DNA from: a bacterium
GTDB lineage: Bacteria > Armatimonadota > UBA5829
Direction of reading: 5' to 3'
Length of the DNA stretch: 41,949 nucleotides
Assembly (NCBI GenBank): GCA_021373255.1
Contig: JAJFTD010000200.1
Span: forward strand, 1-41,949
The first letter of the stretch is position 1; each line of letters opens with the position of its first letter. Made by a program: the position numbers and the translations under genes. The notes under the pieces were generated by a model, which was not told the DNA's origin, made no database searches, and worked only from the letters and a program-made list of their open reading frames with translations. This document shows positions 1,923-39,196 of the stretch, piece after piece.

Positions 1923-2054
1923 TCCGTGGTCGGTGTAGCTCAATGGGCAGAGCGGCCGCACCGAGGGTGTCAGAGCTAAGTGTTGATGCATGCGGACACA
2001 GCTAGGCAGGCCAGCCGAAATCGTGCAGGTTCGAGTCCTGCCACCGATCACGGA
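1923..2054 (+). ncRNA. tRNA-like RNA with extended stem and oversized central insert
   Basis: The ends pair over 13 bp (1923-1935 with 2042-2054, one G-T wobble), of which the inner 7 bp (1929-1935 with 2042-2048) would be the acceptor stem. Then follow TA, a D-arm (GCTC 1938-1941, loop AATGGGCA, GAGC 1950-1953), and on the 3' side a perfect T-arm (GCAGG 2025-2029, loop TTCGAGT, CCTGC 2037-2041). Between them lie 71 nt instead of the roughly 22 that an anticodon arm and short variable loop need. This insert contains its own hairpin (AGCT..GTGT pairing with ACAC-AGCT). No clear anticodon arm and no encoded CCA were found. It could be a degenerate or interrupted tRNA or a tRNA mimic. Confidence 0.6.
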
Positions 2055-33660: not shown

Positions 33661-33846
33661 ATGTCGCCCGAACTCGAGTACTTAATTGACCGCCTGGCTG
33701 CCCAATGGGGCGAGACGCCAGAGGTGCGGCAGGCATATCGCGAGTTCGGGCTGACACTCGTAAGGAGAATCGAGAATTATGAGCGAACCGAAGCAATGCA
33801 GGGATATCAACAAACTCAAAGCAGACCTGCGGAAGAAAATACTTAA
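33661..33846 (+). CDS. Hypothetical helical protein before endolysin
   Basis: 61 aa: SPELEYLIDRLAAQWGETPE, then REFGLTLVRRIENYERTEAM. Helical and charged, five bases after the previous stop, and overlapping the endolysin by 68 nt in another frame. A plausible regulator or spanin-like accessory, but unassigned. Confidence 0.45.
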   Translation: MSPELEYLIDRLAAQWGETPEVRQAYREFGLTLVRRIENYERTEAMQGYQQTQSRPAEENT

Positions 33847-34135
33847 TATCCTCTATGCGCTGAAGCACGAGGGATACCATCCGTTCGTACTCGAAACGCT
33901 ACGCTCAGCAGAGCGGCAGGCATGGCTCATCAAAAAGGGCACTACGTGGACAAAACATTCTCGACACCAGGACGGCGAAGCCTGTGACATCGGCTTCAAA
34001 GACGAAAGAGGCAGTGTCATCTGGGATTCCGCATTTACCGGCTGGGGTCGTCTTGCGCACTACGCGCGTGAGCAGGGACTCGTTGCCGGTCACGACTGGA
34101 AGAAGCGGGACTGCCCGCACGTGGAATTGCCATGA
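33779..34135 (+). CDS. Endolysin: M15-type L-Ala-D-Glu/D-Ala peptidase
   Basis: 118 aa. Contains the M15 peptidase zinc signature: S61-R-H63-x2-G-x-A-x-D70 (SRHQDGEACDIGF) and WKKRDCPHVEL with H114 as third ligand and an acidic catalytic residue before it. VLETLRSAERQ is the usual strand-helix at the domain start. It cleaves peptide cross-bridges of peptidoglycan. No signal peptide and no cell-wall-binding domain, so release depends on a holin. Start has AAGGAG 12 bases upstream, somewhat far. Confidence 0.85.
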   Translation: MSEPKQCRDINKLKADLRKKILNILYALKHEGYHPFVLETLRSAERQAWLIKKGTTWTKHSRHQDGEACDIGFKDERGSVIWDSAFTGWGRLAHYAREQGLVAGHDWKKRDCPHVELP

Positions 34136-34511: not shown

Positions 34512-34596
34512 TGGGTAAAAATACCCCACTTTTTGATGTTGACACCCACACAATTGTGTGGTATATTATATATAGACAACCACACAGTGATGTGGG
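34512..34596 (+). promoter_or_regulatory. Promoter and operators of accessory operon A
   Basis: TTGACA at 34539-34544, 17-nt spacer, TATATT at 34562-34567. The spacer contains a perfect 16-bp palindrome CCACACAATTGTGTGG (34546-34561); a second version CCACACAGTGATGTGG lies at 34580-34595. Upstream is TGGGTAAAAATACCCCAC (34512-34529), which can fold into GGGTA-AAAA-TACCC and is repeated exactly before operon B. Binding of a dimeric regulator, likely the HTH gene at 35175, would block RNA polymerase. Confidence 0.85.
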
Positions 34597-34615
34597 TGAA
34601 TATGGAGGTATTAAA

Positions 34616-35182
34616 ATGCTAGCAGTCACAGGTAACACATATGCAGTTAGGGATAAAATCAAACAACTCGGTGGTCAGTGGGACAGCGCAAACAAACGCT
34701 GGCTGTGCCCAGACGAATACGAATCCGCGCTCAGGGCGATCAGAATCCCGGTCGGTGGCGCGGAACAACTCTGGGAACCATGCTCCCAATGTGGCAATGA
34801 GCCGGTTGACGGCAGCGGATTATGTGAGGACTGTCGCAGGACAGAGGCATTGCGCATTGAACATCTGCTATCTGTCGAGGATGAGGCGAGAGAGTTGATA
34901 GCCGATATGTCAAATTTGGCAATCGCACTATATAACCATGTGTCGCGTAGAGATGCAGAGGCAATTGATGCTCCTGCTAATACTCGGATTGTGGGTCATG
35001 GCTCTCCGTTAGCTGGAGGGTATAGTGTTGATTTGATTACAGACGGGGCGCAGTTGTATGCTCGTTACAACCATCATTATGACTGGGATCACGACAGATA
35101 TTATGTAATACCGACCGACCACCTAAAACCGGCATACAAAACAGCGGTAGAAATGCTGATCAGGAGCGTCGCAAATGACTGA
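34616..35182 (+). CDS. Accessory protein A1 with N-terminal 'GNTY' domain and zinc motif
   Basis: 188 aa from ATG 34616 (GGAGG site); the open frame further upstream overlaps the promoter. Residues 1-42 (LAVTGNTYAVRDKIKQLGGQ, DSANKRWLCPDE) match a small module seen in many phage and plasmid proteins. Residues about 56-77 hold CSQCG...CEDCRR, a four-cysteine zinc site. The remainder (DEARELIADMSNLAIALYNH, SVDLITDGAQLYARYNHHYD) is unassigned. First gene after a tightly controlled promoter, next to an HTH gene: possible anti-defence or superinfection protein. Confidence 0.6.
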   Translation: MLAVTGNTYAVRDKIKQLGGQWDSANKRWLCPDEYESALRAIRIPVGGAEQLWEPCSQCGNEPVDGSGLCEDCRRTEALRIEHLLSVEDEARELIADMSNLAIALYNHVSRRDAEAIDAPANTRIVGHGSPLAGGYSVDLITDGAQLYARYNHHYDWDHDRYYVIPTDHLKPAYKTAVEMLIRSVAND

Positions 35183-35462
35183 CACAGCGTCTAACAGAGC
35201 ACGACGAAAAGGACTTCCACTTACAGATATGCAGAGATATTTATTAGGCTCTGCCGAGGGACTCGCATTCTCGCCGTCACGCCTACGTGACGCGCGACTC
35301 AAAACAGGATTGCATCAGCGCGAAGTTGCGGAAGCGCTGGGGTGCCTCGTAGATATTTTGCGCAGATGGGAATCCGGGCGGACATCTCCGTCTGCGGAAC
35401 TGTTGCTCAAATTAATGATTATTTACGATGTTAACCCTCGTGATTTAATGAGGACTGGGTAA
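35175..35462 (+). CDS. XRE-family regulator closing accessory operon A
   Basis: 95 aa overlapping A1 by 8 nt. Residues about 35-90 are an XRE helix-turn-helix: SRLRDARLKTGLHQREVAEA, LGCLVDILRRWESGRTSPSA, ELLLKLMIIYDVNPRDL. It probably represses its own operon by binding the 16-bp palindromes at 34546 and 34580, as Aca proteins do for anti-CRISPR operons. Its stop lies inside the shared 18-bp element. The last third is duplicated at 37406-37499. Confidence 0.8.
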   Translation: MTDTASNRARRKGLPLTDMQRYLLGSAEGLAFSPSRLRDARLKTGLHQREVAEALGCLVDILRRWESGRTSPSAELLLKLMIIYDVNPRDLMRTG

Positions 35463-35511
35463 AAATACCCCACAAATTACCCTTGACAAATAGGCCCACA
35501 GGGCCTATAAT
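35456..35511 (+). promoter_or_regulatory. Promoter and operator of accessory operon B
   Basis: TTGACA at 35483-35488, 17 nt, TATAAT at 35506-35511: a full consensus sigma70 promoter. The spacer and -10 carry an inverted repeat ATAGGCCC-ACA-GGGCCTAT (35490-35508), different from operon A. TGGGTAAAAATACCCCAC (35456-35473) upstream is identical to 34512-34529. The likely ligand of the repeat is the HTH protein at 37214. Confidence 0.88.
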
Positions 35512-35560
35512 ACTAATGTAGCAAGGTTGATTTGACCGGCTAACATTTGGAGGTTTTGAA

Positions 35561-36058
35561 ATGACCACAATCGACAAAGTAGTTTGGAGCAAAGACTCCA
35601 GCCGAGGACACATTGACATCAGCACAGATGGCAAGCACTACATAGTTGCCATCGATGGTGTTGAGGTCGGTAAAGGCTGGATACAGCCACTCAGACAACC
35701 CCAAGGTGACATCACCCATTACATTGACACCAAGCCCGCGATTGGTCTCACCGCTGCCGATGTAGCTATCCTCAGGCAAGCATCTGCGGATATCTACAAC
35801 GCTGATCCCCGCAATCAACGCAACGAAATACGCGATAAAATGCAGGCCGCTCTCGATAATGAGAGTTATCATCGTAACAGAGATGACAACGGCACCGGGT
35901 TGAGATTTGCTGAGGCCGCCAAATACGAGGCCGAATACAAAGATTTGGCCGCTCAACTCAAAGCCTTTGATGAGGCTCACCCTGAGATTAAGGCCGAAAT
36001 TGATGCTGAGAAGGAATGCAAAAAAGAAGAGGCTCGCAGGTTTGTCGAGAATAACTGA
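35561..36058 (+). CDS. Accessory protein B1, unknown function
   Basis: 165 aa, GGAGG site, first gene under the consensus promoter. N-terminal beta section (DKVVWSKDSSRGHIDISTDG, YIVAIDGVEVGKG), then long charged helices (KYEAEYKDLAAQLKAFDEAH, EKECKKEEARRF). Acidic overall, no catalytic motif. Size, promoter and company fit a candidate inhibitor of host defence; not recognised. Confidence 0.6.
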   Translation: MTTIDKVVWSKDSSRGHIDISTDGKHYIVAIDGVEVGKGWIQPLRQPQGDITHYIDTKPAIGLTAADVAILRQASADIYNADPRNQRNEIRDKMQAALDNESYHRNRDDNGTGLRFAEAAKYEAEYKDLAAQLKAFDEAHPEIKAEIDAEKECKKEEARRFVENN

Positions 36059-36070
36059 GAGGAAACGAAA

Positions 36071-36274
36071 ATGCAGGGAAAACTCTACTACCACAAATCG
36101 TTACCGACCGTCGTTGTAATCAAGATAGCCGACGGCCAAATGCTAATGCAAAACAGCTTGGAGCTGCGCCCAATAGATATTGCCAAGTGCAAGCCATATA
36201 GAGCGCCGCAGACCGAGGCACTCATCCCGGTGCCGGAGTATCTATACAGGCATTACGGCATCGAGTTATCTTGA
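36071..36274 (+). CDS. Accessory protein B2, small beta protein
   Basis: 67 aa, GAGAGGAAACG site. Sequence KLYYHKSLPTVVVIKIADGQ, SLELRPIDIAKCKPYRAPQ suggests a compact beta fold. The stop is one base before the next start. No family recognised. Confidence 0.55.
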   Translation: MQGKLYYHKSLPTVVVIKIADGQMLMQNSLELRPIDIAKCKPYRAPQTEALIPVPEYLYRHYGIELS

Positions 36275-36275
36275 T

Positions 36276-37217
36276 ATGCGGACTTGGCTCGACTACTACA
36301 TATTAGGAGCACTAGACAGCCTGCCTAAAAGCATCAGGCAGCAATTGCCGCACGAAACAGACGCCGATGCAATGTTGTATCACGTATTGCTAACTTTGCG
36401 TGATTTACAGAGCGCAGAATGGATGCCAGATAATGCAAATGTGCCGCGAAATATGATGTTCGCCTGCCTACTACCTTTTTTGGTTAGGGCAACGGGTGCG
36501 CCAGCGGATATCCTTCAGCCATCAACATCTGCGACTGTGGCGGTGCAGGTGAGTCCCGACCTCATCGAGGACTTCGCCCACGCTACTGCACCTGACACTG
36601 ACGCTTGGCGGATACCTATGCAAAACGCGACATGGTATATAGATATCCCTCATCATGCGCTGCTCGTTGGCGAGCATGAGGTCCGCGCGATATTCACGCA
36701 GGGGACAATGCAAGGCGATATGGTAGTGGTGGTTGTGCTCGCACCGCCTGGTAGCGATAGGTTATCAGGTAGATATGTGTGGACGATGAACGATCCGTCG
36801 CCTGTGCTGGGTATGTCTGCACCGGACGAGATTGACGGCGAATATCTCCGCGAATCGATCAATAATCTCATACGCCTGATATCGCTCTACCGGCTGACTG
36901 CGGATTATCGCCAAGAGCGATTGCCTCAGACATCCGTTGATGATCTCTCAAAATTGAGGTTGGACAAGCAGCGTGCCCGCCAAAAAACGCACAGCATATT
37001 CCGTGTTGGCCGCCTGACATCACCACCTGGACGGTTTGGCCGCGAACATACAGGTGAGCGAGCGTGGATATTGACTCATAGAGTGTCGGTGCGCGGGCAT
37101 TTTCGTTGGCAGCCTTACGGACCTGAGCATAGATTGCGCAGGTTGCAGTGGATAGCAGCCCACCATCGTGGACCCGAGGACGGCGGTGAGAAAATTGATA
37201 TCGAGAGGTTGAAATGA
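36276..37217 (+). CDS. Accessory protein B3 with C-terminal basic 'RGH-WQPYG' motif
   Basis: 313 aa from ATG 36276 (one base after the B2 stop; upstream frame is a shadow). Residues about 1-75 helical; 120-200 beta-rich (IPHHALLVGEHEVRAIFTQG, GDMVVVVVLAPPG). C-terminal 40 residues: RVSVRGHFRWQPYGPEHRLR, then WIAAHHRGPEDGG. This R-G-H-x-R-x-Q-x-x-G...W-I-A-x-H..GP pattern recurs at the ends of many mobile-element proteins of unknown role, and may be nucleic-acid-binding. It overlaps the HTH gene by four bases. Confidence 0.6.
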   Translation: MRTWLDYYILGALDSLPKSIRQQLPHETDADAMLYHVLLTLRDLQSAEWMPDNANVPRNMMFACLLPFLVRATGAPADILQPSTSATVAVQVSPDLIEDFAHATAPDTDAWRIPMQNATWYIDIPHHALLVGEHEVRAIFTQGTMQGDMVVVVVLAPPGSDRLSGRYVWTMNDPSPVLGMSAPDEIDGEYLRESINNLIRLISLYRLTADYRQERLPQTSVDDLSKLRLDKQRARQKTHSIFRVGRLTSPPGRFGREHTGERAWILTHRVSVRGHFRWQPYGPEHRLRRLQWIAAHHRGPEDGGEKIDIERLK

Positions 37218-37396
37218 CGCGAGAGGAATTACGAGAGATTGGGACAAAACTGTGGGGACCACGCTGGCAGACGGCAATGGCAAACGCCCTGCGTGTTAAT
37301 GCCCGCACAGTGCGCAAATGGCTGGCAGGGGATCGCGGTATCCCTGGACCTGTCGAGGTGGCGCTCAAGGCTTTGCTGGATGCGCGGAAGCAATGA
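37214..37396 (+). CDS. Small HTH regulator closing accessory operon B
   Basis: 60 aa, ATGA overlap with B3. Helix-turn-helix: WQTAMANALRVNARTVRKWL followed by AGDRGIPGPVEVALKALLDA. Very similar in size and pattern to phage autorepressors that bind one inverted repeat at their own promoter. Likely target is 35490-35508. This places an Aca-like gene at the end of operon B, as in operon A. Confidence 0.75.
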   Translation: MTREELREIGTKLWGPRWQTAMANALRVNARTVRKWLAGDRGIPGPVEVALKALLDARKQ

Positions 37397-37405
37397 GGCG
37401 CCGGA

Positions 37406-37499
37406 GTGTCTCGTAGATATTTTGCGCCGGTGGGAATCAGCGCGAACGACTCCATCTGCGGAGCTGCTGCTCAAATTAATGATTATTTACGATATCAGC
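37406..37499 (+). pseudogene. Truncated duplicate of the XRE regulator
   Basis: Translates as ECLVDILRRWESARTTPSAE and LLLKLMIIYDISP without start codon or N-terminal half. It aligns at DNA level with 35342-35435 with only scattered differences. It lies ten bases after the operon B HTH stop. A hairpin AGCCCGC/GCGGGCT (37497-37520) follows. This is a recombination remnant, indicating that cassettes here are exchanged at the XRE 3' end. Confidence 0.7.
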
Positions 37500-37518
37500 C
37501 CGCTCTACCACAGGCGGG

Positions 37519-37620: not shown

Positions 37621-37679
37621 ATTCCCTCTTTTTGGCATTGCCGAAGTGGTTACAATGCCAAAAACAATGCCATAACAAA

Positions 37680-37716
37680 AATAAGCCTCTGAAAGCATTT
37701 TTCAGAGGCTTATTTT
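37680..37716. terminator. Bidirectional terminator in attP
   Basis: Perfect 15-bp stem (37680-37694 with 37700-37714), 5-nt loop GCATT, with T-runs on both strands. It can end both rightward accessory transcripts and leftward integrase transcripts, and is one of the strongest hairpins in the genome. Confidence 0.85.
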
Positions 37717-37877: not shown

Positions 37878-39014
37878 TTACAATGCCAAGGTCCCCAGCA
37901 CATCCACTATGCCGTCCTGTGTGCCTCTCATCAGATGCCCGTAGGTGTTGACAGTTATCTCAATACTGGAGTGCCCTAGCCGTTCGCTTACAGCAATGAT
38001 CGGCACGCCTCTGTTGAGCAATATGGAAGCGTGGGTGTGCCGAAGTGTATGAATGGAGTGAATCGAAATACCCGCGTGTTTGCAAAGTTTTGGAAAAAAT
38101 CTTTTTACCGATTCAATCCTCATAAGCTCTCCGTAATCGGTCGGCGATACCCAATCGTTCTGCAGATAAGATTCACCCAACGATTCTGCTTTTTGCTCTG
38201 TAGCTATTTTGTGGGCACGGAGGATATCCATGGTCGCCTGAGTGACGGGTATACTGCGATGCTTATTGTTCTTCGGTGGTTTAATGTTCATTTTGCCACC
38301 GGTCGACTCAACCGCCTGCGTCACATGTATGAGCCTTCGGGCAAAATCAATGTTGCGCCACTCCAACGCCATAATCTCGCCGATCCTCATACCTGTTGCT
38401 GAGGCAATAACAACCGGTATGTAATATCGTGAGGTTTTTGTATAGGTGAGGAGGGTGCGCAATTCTTCCTCTGTGAATATCTCGATCTGTGTTTTAGGTA
38501 GACGAGGCAATTCGACGCCGACCATTGGTGACCGTGCTATCAATTGCCACTGCACAGCTTTATTGAGCGCGGTTCGCAGGCATGTGACGTGATGACGAAC
38601 ACTGCAGGCCGACAATGTTTCCTTGCCGTTAAGTTTGCTCTTACCATTGAGCTTATCTGTGATGTACTGTTGAATATCTGTGGATTTCAACTTGTCCAGC
38701 CTGATGCTGCCGAGCGCAGGAATGATGTGAGAATTGCACCAGCCGCTGTAATTCTCATGCGTTTTGTCCGTGACTGTGCTGTTTTTTGTCTGTTTCAGCC
38801 AATACGAGAGGTATTCCCCCAGTGTTTGCGAGCAAGGTTCAACGTGTGTGCCTTCGCGCAACTCTACCAATATCTTGTGTAAAGCCGCCTGAGCGTCTTT
38901 CTTGCCACCTCTAATGGTTTTGTTGTGGTATATATCCCTTCCCTGCTCGTTTTTGCCGCAATACCACTGCAGCCGCCACGAGCCGGGAGATCGCTGTGTT
39001 ACTGATCCGCGCAT
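37878..39014 (-). CDS. int: Tyrosine-family integrase
   Basis: 378 aa from ATG 39014, set by AAGGAG eight bases upstream; a GTG seven codons earlier is in frame. N-terminal arm-binding domain (SVTQRSPGSWRLQWYCGKNE, then DIYHNKTIRGGKKDAQ), SAM-like core-binding domain (SQTLGEYLSYWLKQTK), and catalytic domain with R in ATGMRIGE (about 210), H-x-x-R in HTLRH (about 322-325), H in LGHSS (348) and nucleophile Y in VNTYGH (358). It recombines attP with the host tRNA-Arg gene. Its 3' end overlaps an arm site. Confidence 0.95.
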   Translation of the reverse strand: MRGSVTQRSPGSWRLQWYCGKNEQGRDIYHNKTIRGGKKDAQAALHKILVELREGTHVEPCSQTLGEYLSYWLKQTKNSTVTDKTHENYSGWCNSHIIPALGSIRLDKLKSTDIQQYITDKLNGKSKLNGKETLSACSVRHHVTCLRTALNKAVQWQLIARSPMVGVELPRLPKTQIEIFTEEELRTLLTYTKTSRYYIPVVIASATGMRIGEIMALEWRNIDFARRLIHVTQAVESTGGKMNIKPPKNNKHRSIPVTQATMDILRAHKIATEQKAESLGESYLQNDWVSPTDYGELMRIESVKRFFPKLCKHAGISIHSIHTLRHTHASILLNRGVPIIAVSERLGHSSIEITVNTYGHLMRGTQDGIVDVLGTLAL

Positions 39015-39196
39015 TGTGATTTCTCCTTGATGCACGGCGGCAACGCGGCCGCTCGCTCAATAGCAAAGCGAAAAAGCCGTCTGAGTATTTCTGCGTCTTC
39101 TGCGTCGATATATTTAAGCGTGTGTTTCAGCGTTATCACCATATCGCTGTAGATGGTTTCGTATTCGGGAGTAAGTTGTGCGCGTTTACGGGGCAT
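38999..39196 (-). CDS. Small helical protein coupled to integrase
   Basis: 65 aa; its 3' end overlaps the integrase start by 16 nt and contains its ribosome site. PRKRAQLTPEYETIYSDMVI, KHTLKYIDAEDAEILRRLFR. Basic start, helical body. Possible excisionase or directionality factor by position, but no winged-helix pattern. Translation of this gene probably controls integrase synthesis. Confidence 0.55.
   Translation of the reverse strand: MPRKRAQLTPEYETIYSDMVITLKHTLKYIDAEDAEILRRLFRFAIERAAALPPCIKEKSQCADQ

What the first reader, a model, noticed from the sequence alone, without database searches (positions are those of the whole stretch)
34512..37396. Two anti-defence-style operons, each ending in an HTH autoregulator
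Operons A (34616-35462) and B (35561-37396) each have a sigma70 promoter with exact 17-bp spacing and a different palindrome inside the spacer, unrecognised payload genes, and a terminal HTH gene. This is the organisation of anti-CRISPR/Aca and related counter-defence cassettes, located in the classic cargo spot between lysis genes and attP. Payload candidates A1, B1, B2 and B3 have no recognised function.
Basis: partly seen in the sequence, partly recalled or inferred. Interest (0 to 1): 0.85.

Follow-up and report, generated by a model that had tools for sequence, protein, structure and literature searches.

The report
Phage cargo operons with Aca2-like repressors
Next to its integrase this prophage carries two small self-regulated gene sets; [quoted passage not shown]

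Summary
The two operons are real. Each has a near-perfect sigma-70 promoter with a 17-bp spacer, a palindrome with perfect 8-bp arms in the spacer, and a final HTH gene. The autoregulator reading is strengthened and extended. The 60-aa HTH ending operon B belongs to a large family in phages and plasmids, usually the last gene of a cassette of one to three small ORFs. Its profile finds Aca2 first in the PDB (E=4e-4) and aligns full-length with Aca2 of phage ZF40 (E=4e-8). Operon B's leader (35516-35545) folds into a hairpin with a 2:1 internal loop. A covariance model of 11 such leaders found it in 26 further loci fetched only by HTH similarity, always on the HTH's strand and, but for one tandem copy, upstream of it. 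Pairing shows strong compensatory change; Rfam has no match. Best reading: an Aca2-like repressor acting at DNA and probably mRNA. The anti-defence payload claim is unproven: no payload matches a characterised family, B3 relatives elsewhere sit beside RecT, DnaB or nuclease genes, and the host assembly shows no Cas1 and no match to a relative's Cas9. Operon A has the same layout by single-sequence evidence.

The parts
34512..34529 (+). Shared upstream element TGGGTAAAAATACCCCAC (contains GGGTA-AAAA-TACCC), 27 bp before the -35 of operon A
   Evidence: D3; only two occurrences in the 4.2-Mb genome
34539..34567 (+). Operon A promoter TTGACA-17-TATATT with spacer palindrome CCACACAATTGTGTGG (34546-34561), putative DNA operator
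34579..34596 (+). Operon A leader hairpin around CCACACAGTGATGTGG, arms repeat the operator half-site; second operator or RNA hairpin (inferred)
   Evidence: single-sequence evidence
34616..35182 (+). A1, 188 aa, weak DUF5710-like N-terminus plus a CxxC..CxxC segment; function unknown
   Evidence: (23.1 bits, below the 26.5 cut-off)
35175..35462 (+). A-HTH, 95 aa, HTH_3/MqsA-type C-terminal HTH, putative autorepressor
35456..35473 (+). Second copy of the shared upstream element, overlapping the end of A-HTH, 27 bp before the -35 of operon B
35483..35511 (+). Operon B promoter TTGACA-17-TATAAT with palindrome ATAGGCCC-ACA-GGGCCTAT (35490-35508), putative DNA operator of B-HTH
35516..35545 (+). 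Leader hairpin of operon B, member of a covarying RNA motif (model R1); paired part 35519-35542
   Evidence: (E=0.0024, only good hit in the window; a seed member)
35561..36058 (+). B1, 165 aa, no family and no relatives found
36071..36274 (+). B2, 67 aa, no family
36276..37217 (+). B3, 313 aa, member of a widespread phage/plasmid family with C-terminal motif VRGHFRWQPYGP (phrog_15934)
37214..37396 (+). B-HTH, 60 aa, minimal Aca2-related HTH, putative DNA- and RNA-binding autorepressor
37395..37501 (+). Truncated copy (84% over 107 nt) of the 3' half of the A-HTH gene

Best explanation
Operons A and B are accessory (cargo) cassettes of a temperate phage, each controlled by its own last gene. 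For operon B: on entry, the strong promoter at 35483-35511 drives a burst of B1-B2-B3 and B-HTH. B-HTH, a minimal (HTH-only) relative of Aca2, then (i) binds the palindrome inside the promoter and shuts off transcription, and (ii) binds the hairpin at the 5' end of the mRNA (35516-35545), which ends 15 nt before the B1 start codon, and hinders ribosome access, so mRNA already made is silenced as well. Shown here: the anatomy; the relation of B-HTH to Aca2; that the hairpin is a conserved, covarying element linked to this HTH family; and that a palindrome lies in or over the core promoter in many relatives. Inferred: that the HTH protein is what binds the operator and the hairpin, and the order of events. 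What the cargo proteins do is not known; an anti-host role is possible but untested. Operon A probably works in a similar way with a different, MqsA-type HTH.
For: HTH family: P0006 relatives are the last or near-last gene of small-ORF operons in Mannheimia, Edwardsiella and Klebsiella phages and enterobacterial plasmids and in IMG/VR contigs. Aca2 relation: hhalign with ZF40 Aca2 95%, E=3.7e-8, 60 columns, 28% identity; the four best PDB hits of the family profile are all Aca2. Hairpin: seed covariation 0.702 vs 0.209 shuffled and at most 0.143 slid. Model R1 on 80 HTH-family loci plus the window: the 30 best matches all lie on the HTH strand, 29 upstream of the HTH and one at a tandem copy in L128 (three of the 30 - window, L070, L080 - were in the seed, leaving 27 matches in 26 loci not used for the model). 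Their alignment: 94.7% of cells paired, 53 compensatory cells vs 16.7 shuffled, covariation 0.677 vs at most 0.102 slid; RNAalifold predicts the same fold. Further hits: a Klebsiella plasmid (E=0.002) and two Klebsiella phages (E=8e-5). No R1 hit at E up to 5 in 15 loci of B3 relatives. The gap from the match end to the first start codon is about 16-24 nt in most loci. Many relatives carry TGTCCTA-n-TTAGGACA-type or CCTAAATTTAGG palindromes in the promoter. ZF40 acrIF8-aca2 has the same order: palindrome in spacer, -10, hairpin with AUGG loop, about 20 nt, ATG. That Aca2 binds DNA and RNA stem-loops is from my knowledge of Birkholz et al. 2024 (not in the library); that Aca proteins repress promoters carrying inverted repeats is in PMC9410906.
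Against: No binding was tested. R1 does not match the ZF40 Aca2 leader, so the RNA elements are alike in position and loop but not shown homologous. The window's operator (ATAGGCCC..GGGCCTAT) differs from the CCTA/TAGG type common in relatives. Solo HTH genes from Acinetobacter-type loci (L040-L048) lack the hairpin, and about two thirds of the 80 loci gave no match below E=0.2. The operator palindromes of many relatives are imperfect, so a count of perfect arms is not exceptional in most. The A8 alignment was fitted to the model. The window leader alone is not clearly more stable than shuffles (z -0.85 for 68 nt; -2.29 for 36 nt).
Confidence: 0.68

Rival explanations
1. B-HTH acts only on DNA; the leader hairpin is an independent RNA feature (5'-end stabiliser or a site for a host protein) that travels with these promoters.
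For: Direct RNA binding was not tested; R1 does not match the Aca2 leader; most characterised HTH regulators act on DNA.
Against: The hairpin tracks this HTH family across unrelated payloads, sits at a fixed distance before the start codon, has a constrained loop and asymmetric internal loop, and the nearest relative with structures is Aca2.
Confidence: 0.2
2. The hairpin is a second DNA operator, not an RNA element.
For: Published acr-aca promoters often have a second inverted repeat resembling the first (PMC9410906); operon A's downstream repeat shares its operator half-site.
Against: Stem sequences vary freely with compensatory changes (GC/CG/AU/UA) while a 2:1 asymmetric internal loop is kept; in the seed the hairpin does not resemble the promoter palindrome. 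A sequence-reading DNA protein would keep sequence rather than pairing.
Confidence: 0.1
3. The payloads are anti-CRISPR or other counter-defence proteins. This is a claim about cargo and is compatible with the best explanation of the regulation.
For: acr/aca-like layout; Aca2-related regulator; short-protein payloads in variable cargo; B3 relative adjacent to the defence gene dsr1 on a Nitrosococcus plasmid; a same-genus relative has a type II CRISPR-Cas9 locus near its related prophage.
Against: No payload match to characterised families; no Cas1 in the host assembly and no match to the relative's Cas9; no spacer of that array matches the window; B3 relatives lie beside RecT, DUF3799 nuclease, DnaB or IMPDH genes in other phages; B3 is long for an Acr.
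Confidence: 0.3
4. The operons are type II toxin-antitoxin modules with the antitoxin second.
For: A-HTH resembles MqsA/HigA-type antitoxins; B-HTH weakly matches YdaS.
Against: No toxin family detected in A1, B1, B2 or B3; payloads of related cassettes are diverse and show no plausible toxin match.
Confidence: 0.08

Closest known systems
Aca2 and the acrIF8-aca2 operon of Pectobacterium phage ZF40
   Same: Homologous HTH; last gene of a small cassette; palindrome in the promoter spacer; leader hairpin followed by about 20 nt to the start codon
   Different: B-HTH is 60 aa against 116 aa and lacks the C-terminal dimerisation region; model R1 does not match the ZF40 leader; no known acr in the operon
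Other Aca families (Aca5, 60 aa; Aca9, 69 aa; PMC9410906, PMC7648647)
   Same: Small single-HTH proteins at the end of short operons in phages and plasmids, with inverted repeats in the promoter
phrog_15934-related proteins (B3)
   Same: C-terminal VxGHFRxQPYGP motif, about 270-340 aa, in phages, plasmids and chromosomes
   Different: Relatives are not generally linked to B-HTH-type regulators and several lie in replication/recombination neighbourhoods
MqsA/HigA-type HTH regulators (A-HTH)
   Same: HTH_3 domain with weak MqsA resemblance
   Different: No toxin partner found; below the MqsA cut-off

Membership tests
Aca2/YdiL (PF08965) | Match to PF08965 above the curated cut-off | tested here: not met
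   12.6 bits against 23.8 for P0006; 14 of 28 family members match weakly, best E 1e-4
Aca2/YdiL (PF08965) | HTH domain homologous to Aca2 | tested here: met
   hhalign 95%, E=3.7e-8; Aca2 structures are the best PDB hits of the profile
Aca2/YdiL (PF08965) | C-terminal dimerisation domain (about 116-125 aa in all) | tested here: not met
   B-HTH is 60 aa and ends after the HTH
Aca2-type dual regulation | Inverted repeat within the core promoter | tested here: met
   35490-35508
Aca2-type dual regulation | Conserved RNA stem-loop in the leader near the ribosome-binding site | tested here: met
   but R1 does not hit ZF40 itself
Aca2-type dual regulation | Direct binding of DNA and RNA by the HTH protein | not testable with these tools
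   Needs a bench assay
Anti-CRISPR locus | A known or demonstrated acr gene in the operon | tested here: inconclusive
   No match in Pfam, NCBIfam, PHROGs or PADLOC, but these libraries cover few acr families
Anti-CRISPR locus | Target CRISPR-Cas system in the host | tested here: not met
   No Cas1 (control genomes ring) and no match to the relative's Cas9 in a draft of 201 contigs
Aca5 / Aca9 | Sequence membership | not testable with these tools
   Reference sequences not held; only main-text passages of PMC9410906 and PMC7648647 read
Type II toxin-antitoxin | Recognisable toxin partner | tested here: not met

The most novel reading that the evidence does not exclude
A family of HTH-only, Aca2-related regulators, spread across phages and plasmids and not described in anything I could read, controls highly diverse small accessory genes through both a DNA operator and a conserved structured mRNA leader that is not in Rfam. 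The leader could serve as a sequence beacon for finding unknown cargo, including counter-defence genes.
Probability: 0.55. Interest if true: 0.78.

Novelty: new variant of a known kind. Interest (0 to 1): 0.62.

Why it matters
If the hairpin is the RNA target of this HTH family, then DNA-plus-RNA control, known to me only for Aca2, extends to a large family of minimal HTH proteins in phages and plasmids. A leader of about 30 nt with a strong covariation signal also gives a regulator-independent way to find accessory cassettes whose payloads are almost all of unknown function, the pool in which anti-defence genes are sought. Both points can be tested directly with one short RNA, one 60-aa protein and a reporter.

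Tried and rejected
DNA similarity of the region in the phage collection: none. Payload relatives: A1 in viral contigs, phages and plasmids and B1 in phages and plasmids gave nothing useful; B1 was not scanned in the viral collection. The first genome scan for B3 used poor patterns and found nothing; a second found three loci. B3: AlphaFold model from 10 rows has pLDDT 50, so no fold search was run. Rfam: no match for the leader in the window or in ten relative loci. R1 against the ZF40 Aca2 leader: no match. Other members of the host phylum: no A-HTH, B-HTH or B3 relative in the genomes searched, although the phage's terminase has a 70%-identical relative in the same genus, so the contig does not look like a stray from another host. 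Spacers of a same-genus CRISPR array against the window: chance-level matches only. Literature: no held paper found that describes this leader. A-HTH relatives: one solo HTH match, uninformative. The host was not identified.
Full report
WHAT IS THERE. The window is a temperate phage contig (terminase, portal, tape measure, primase and integrase identified). Between an endolysin-like gene (33779-34135) and the integrase (37878-39035) lie two compact same-strand operons exactly as described. Both promoters are the best sigma-70 matches of the region and both carry a palindrome with perfect 8-bp arms in the 17-bp spacer. By shuffling, the palindrome in B is rare (48 of 20,000) and that in A less so (711 of 20,000), because A's sequence is CA/TG-rich.

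(i) An identical 18-nt element lies 27 bp upstream of both -35 boxes and nowhere else in the genome, even allowing one mismatch. (ii) The 3' half of the A-HTH gene is present again, 84% identical, immediately after operon B: a trace of cassette shuffling. (iii) Each promoter is followed by a hairpin ending about 20 nt before the first start codon.

THE HTH FAMILY OF OPERON B. B-HTH (60 aa) falls below all curated cut-offs but matches PHROGs of unknown function. tblastn found relatives in hundreds of enterobacterial and Acinetobacter plasmids and a few phages; most of the neighbourhoods that I opened show it as the last or near-last gene of a run of small ORFs. Degenerate searches of IMG/VR with alignments of these proteins brought in 100 further loci. 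A 28-sequence profile finds Aca2 as the first four hits in the PDB (E 4e-4 to 1e-3) and aligns along its whole length with Aca2 of ZF40 (E=3.7e-8). It is thus an Aca2-related, HTH-only family; it fails the Pfam Aca2 cut-off and lacks the C-terminal domain, so I do not file it as Aca2.

THE LEADER HAIRPIN. Comparing leaders of eleven of these operons by eye showed one design: a 3-4 bp stem, an internal loop of two nt on the 5' side and one on the 3' side, a 4-bp GGNN/NNCC stem and a loop of about 5 nt. On this hand-picked alignment covariation was 0.702 against 0.209 shuffled and at most 0.143 slid. As picked alignments can mislead, I built a covariance model and searched 80 other loci, fetched only by protein similarity of the HTH, together with the whole window. 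The 30 best matches (E below 0.2) all lie on the HTH strand; 29 are upstream of the HTH and one, in L128, starts about 30 nt after the HTH gene and is an identical second copy. Three of the 30 (window; L070 and L080, which are the same contigs as seeds L051 and L052) are not independent, and a few others are near-duplicates. The alignment of the matches has 26 distinct rows, 94.7% paired cells, 53 compensatory cells against 16.7 in shuffles and covariation 0.677 against at most 0.102 slid; it was fitted to the model, but RNAalifold predicts the same fold on it. Named records not used in the model also match: a Klebsiella plasmid (E=0.002) and two Klebsiella phages (E=8e-5). Fifteen loci of B3 relatives, used as controls, gave no match. 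Rfam has no such family. In most loci the first start codon follows the match by 16-24 nt.

RNA OR DNA. Stems change by compensation while the asymmetric internal loop and part of the loop sequence are kept, and the promoter palindromes of the same loci have another sequence, often CCTA-n-TAGG. That points to RNA. In ZF40 the acrIF8-aca2 operon has the same order: spacer palindrome GTTCGCGATTGCGAAC, TATAAT, a 9-bp hairpin with AUGG loop, about 20 nt, ATG. R1 does not score it, so I claim analogy of layout, not homology of the RNA. That Aca2 binds both DNA and RNA stem-loops is recalled from the literature (Birkholz et al. 2024), which the library does not hold.

PAYLOADS. A1, B1, B2 and B3 match no characterised family. 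B3 belongs to a family with a C-terminal VRGHFRWQPYGP motif in proteobacterial plasmids (34.5% over 99% in Skermanella), actinobacterial plasmids, Bradyrhizobium and phages; in phages and one chromosome it sits near RecT, a DUF3799 nuclease, DUF932, DnaB or IMPDH genes, and on a Nitrosococcus plasmid next to dsr1. The 36 payload genes of related cassettes are almost all unknown, with one GNAT acetyltransferase. One of them (L128 1888-2208) contains the segment LKKQGGKFNSANKTWIISSD, resembling A1's IKQLGGQWDSANKRWLCPDE (by eye).

HOST CONTEXT. A same-genus genome has a related phage (terminase 70%) whose corresponding end carries different genes and abuts what reads as a type II CRISPR-Cas9 locus with a 36-nt repeat, so operons A and B are variable cargo. 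No spacer of that array matches the window. The host assembly itself gives no match to that Cas9 or to Cas1, which does not favour an anti-CRISPR role here, though the assembly is a draft.

VERDICT.

Noticed in passing
window 34512-34529 and 35456-35473: Identical 18-nt element 27 bp before both -35 boxes, found nowhere else in the genome; possible site for a regulator common to both operons.
   Followed up: partly
window 37395-37501: Truncated copy of the A-HTH gene 3' half, 84% identical, after operon B; suggests shuffling of HTH cassettes.
   Followed up: partly
L128 1841-1869 and 2754-2782: Two identical leader hairpins flank one HTH cassette, suggesting tandem cassettes as in the window.
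   Followed up: no
L151 6265-11629 (same-genus genome G003): Apparent type II CRISPR-Cas9 locus (array, Cas2, Cas1, Cas9) directly beside the end of a related prophage; identified from the translated sequence by eye.
   Followed up: partly
window 1929-2049: tRNA model match of 121 nt (39.7 bits) with a long insertion; ARAGORN reports no tRNA. Possible intron or odd tRNA.
   Followed up: no
window 37678-37716: Perfect 17-bp inverted repeat with 5-nt gap between operon B and the integrase; likely a terminator.
   Followed up: no
L004 (Nitrosococcus plasmid): B3 relative, apparently frame-disrupted, lies next to the defence gene dsr1.
   Followed up: no
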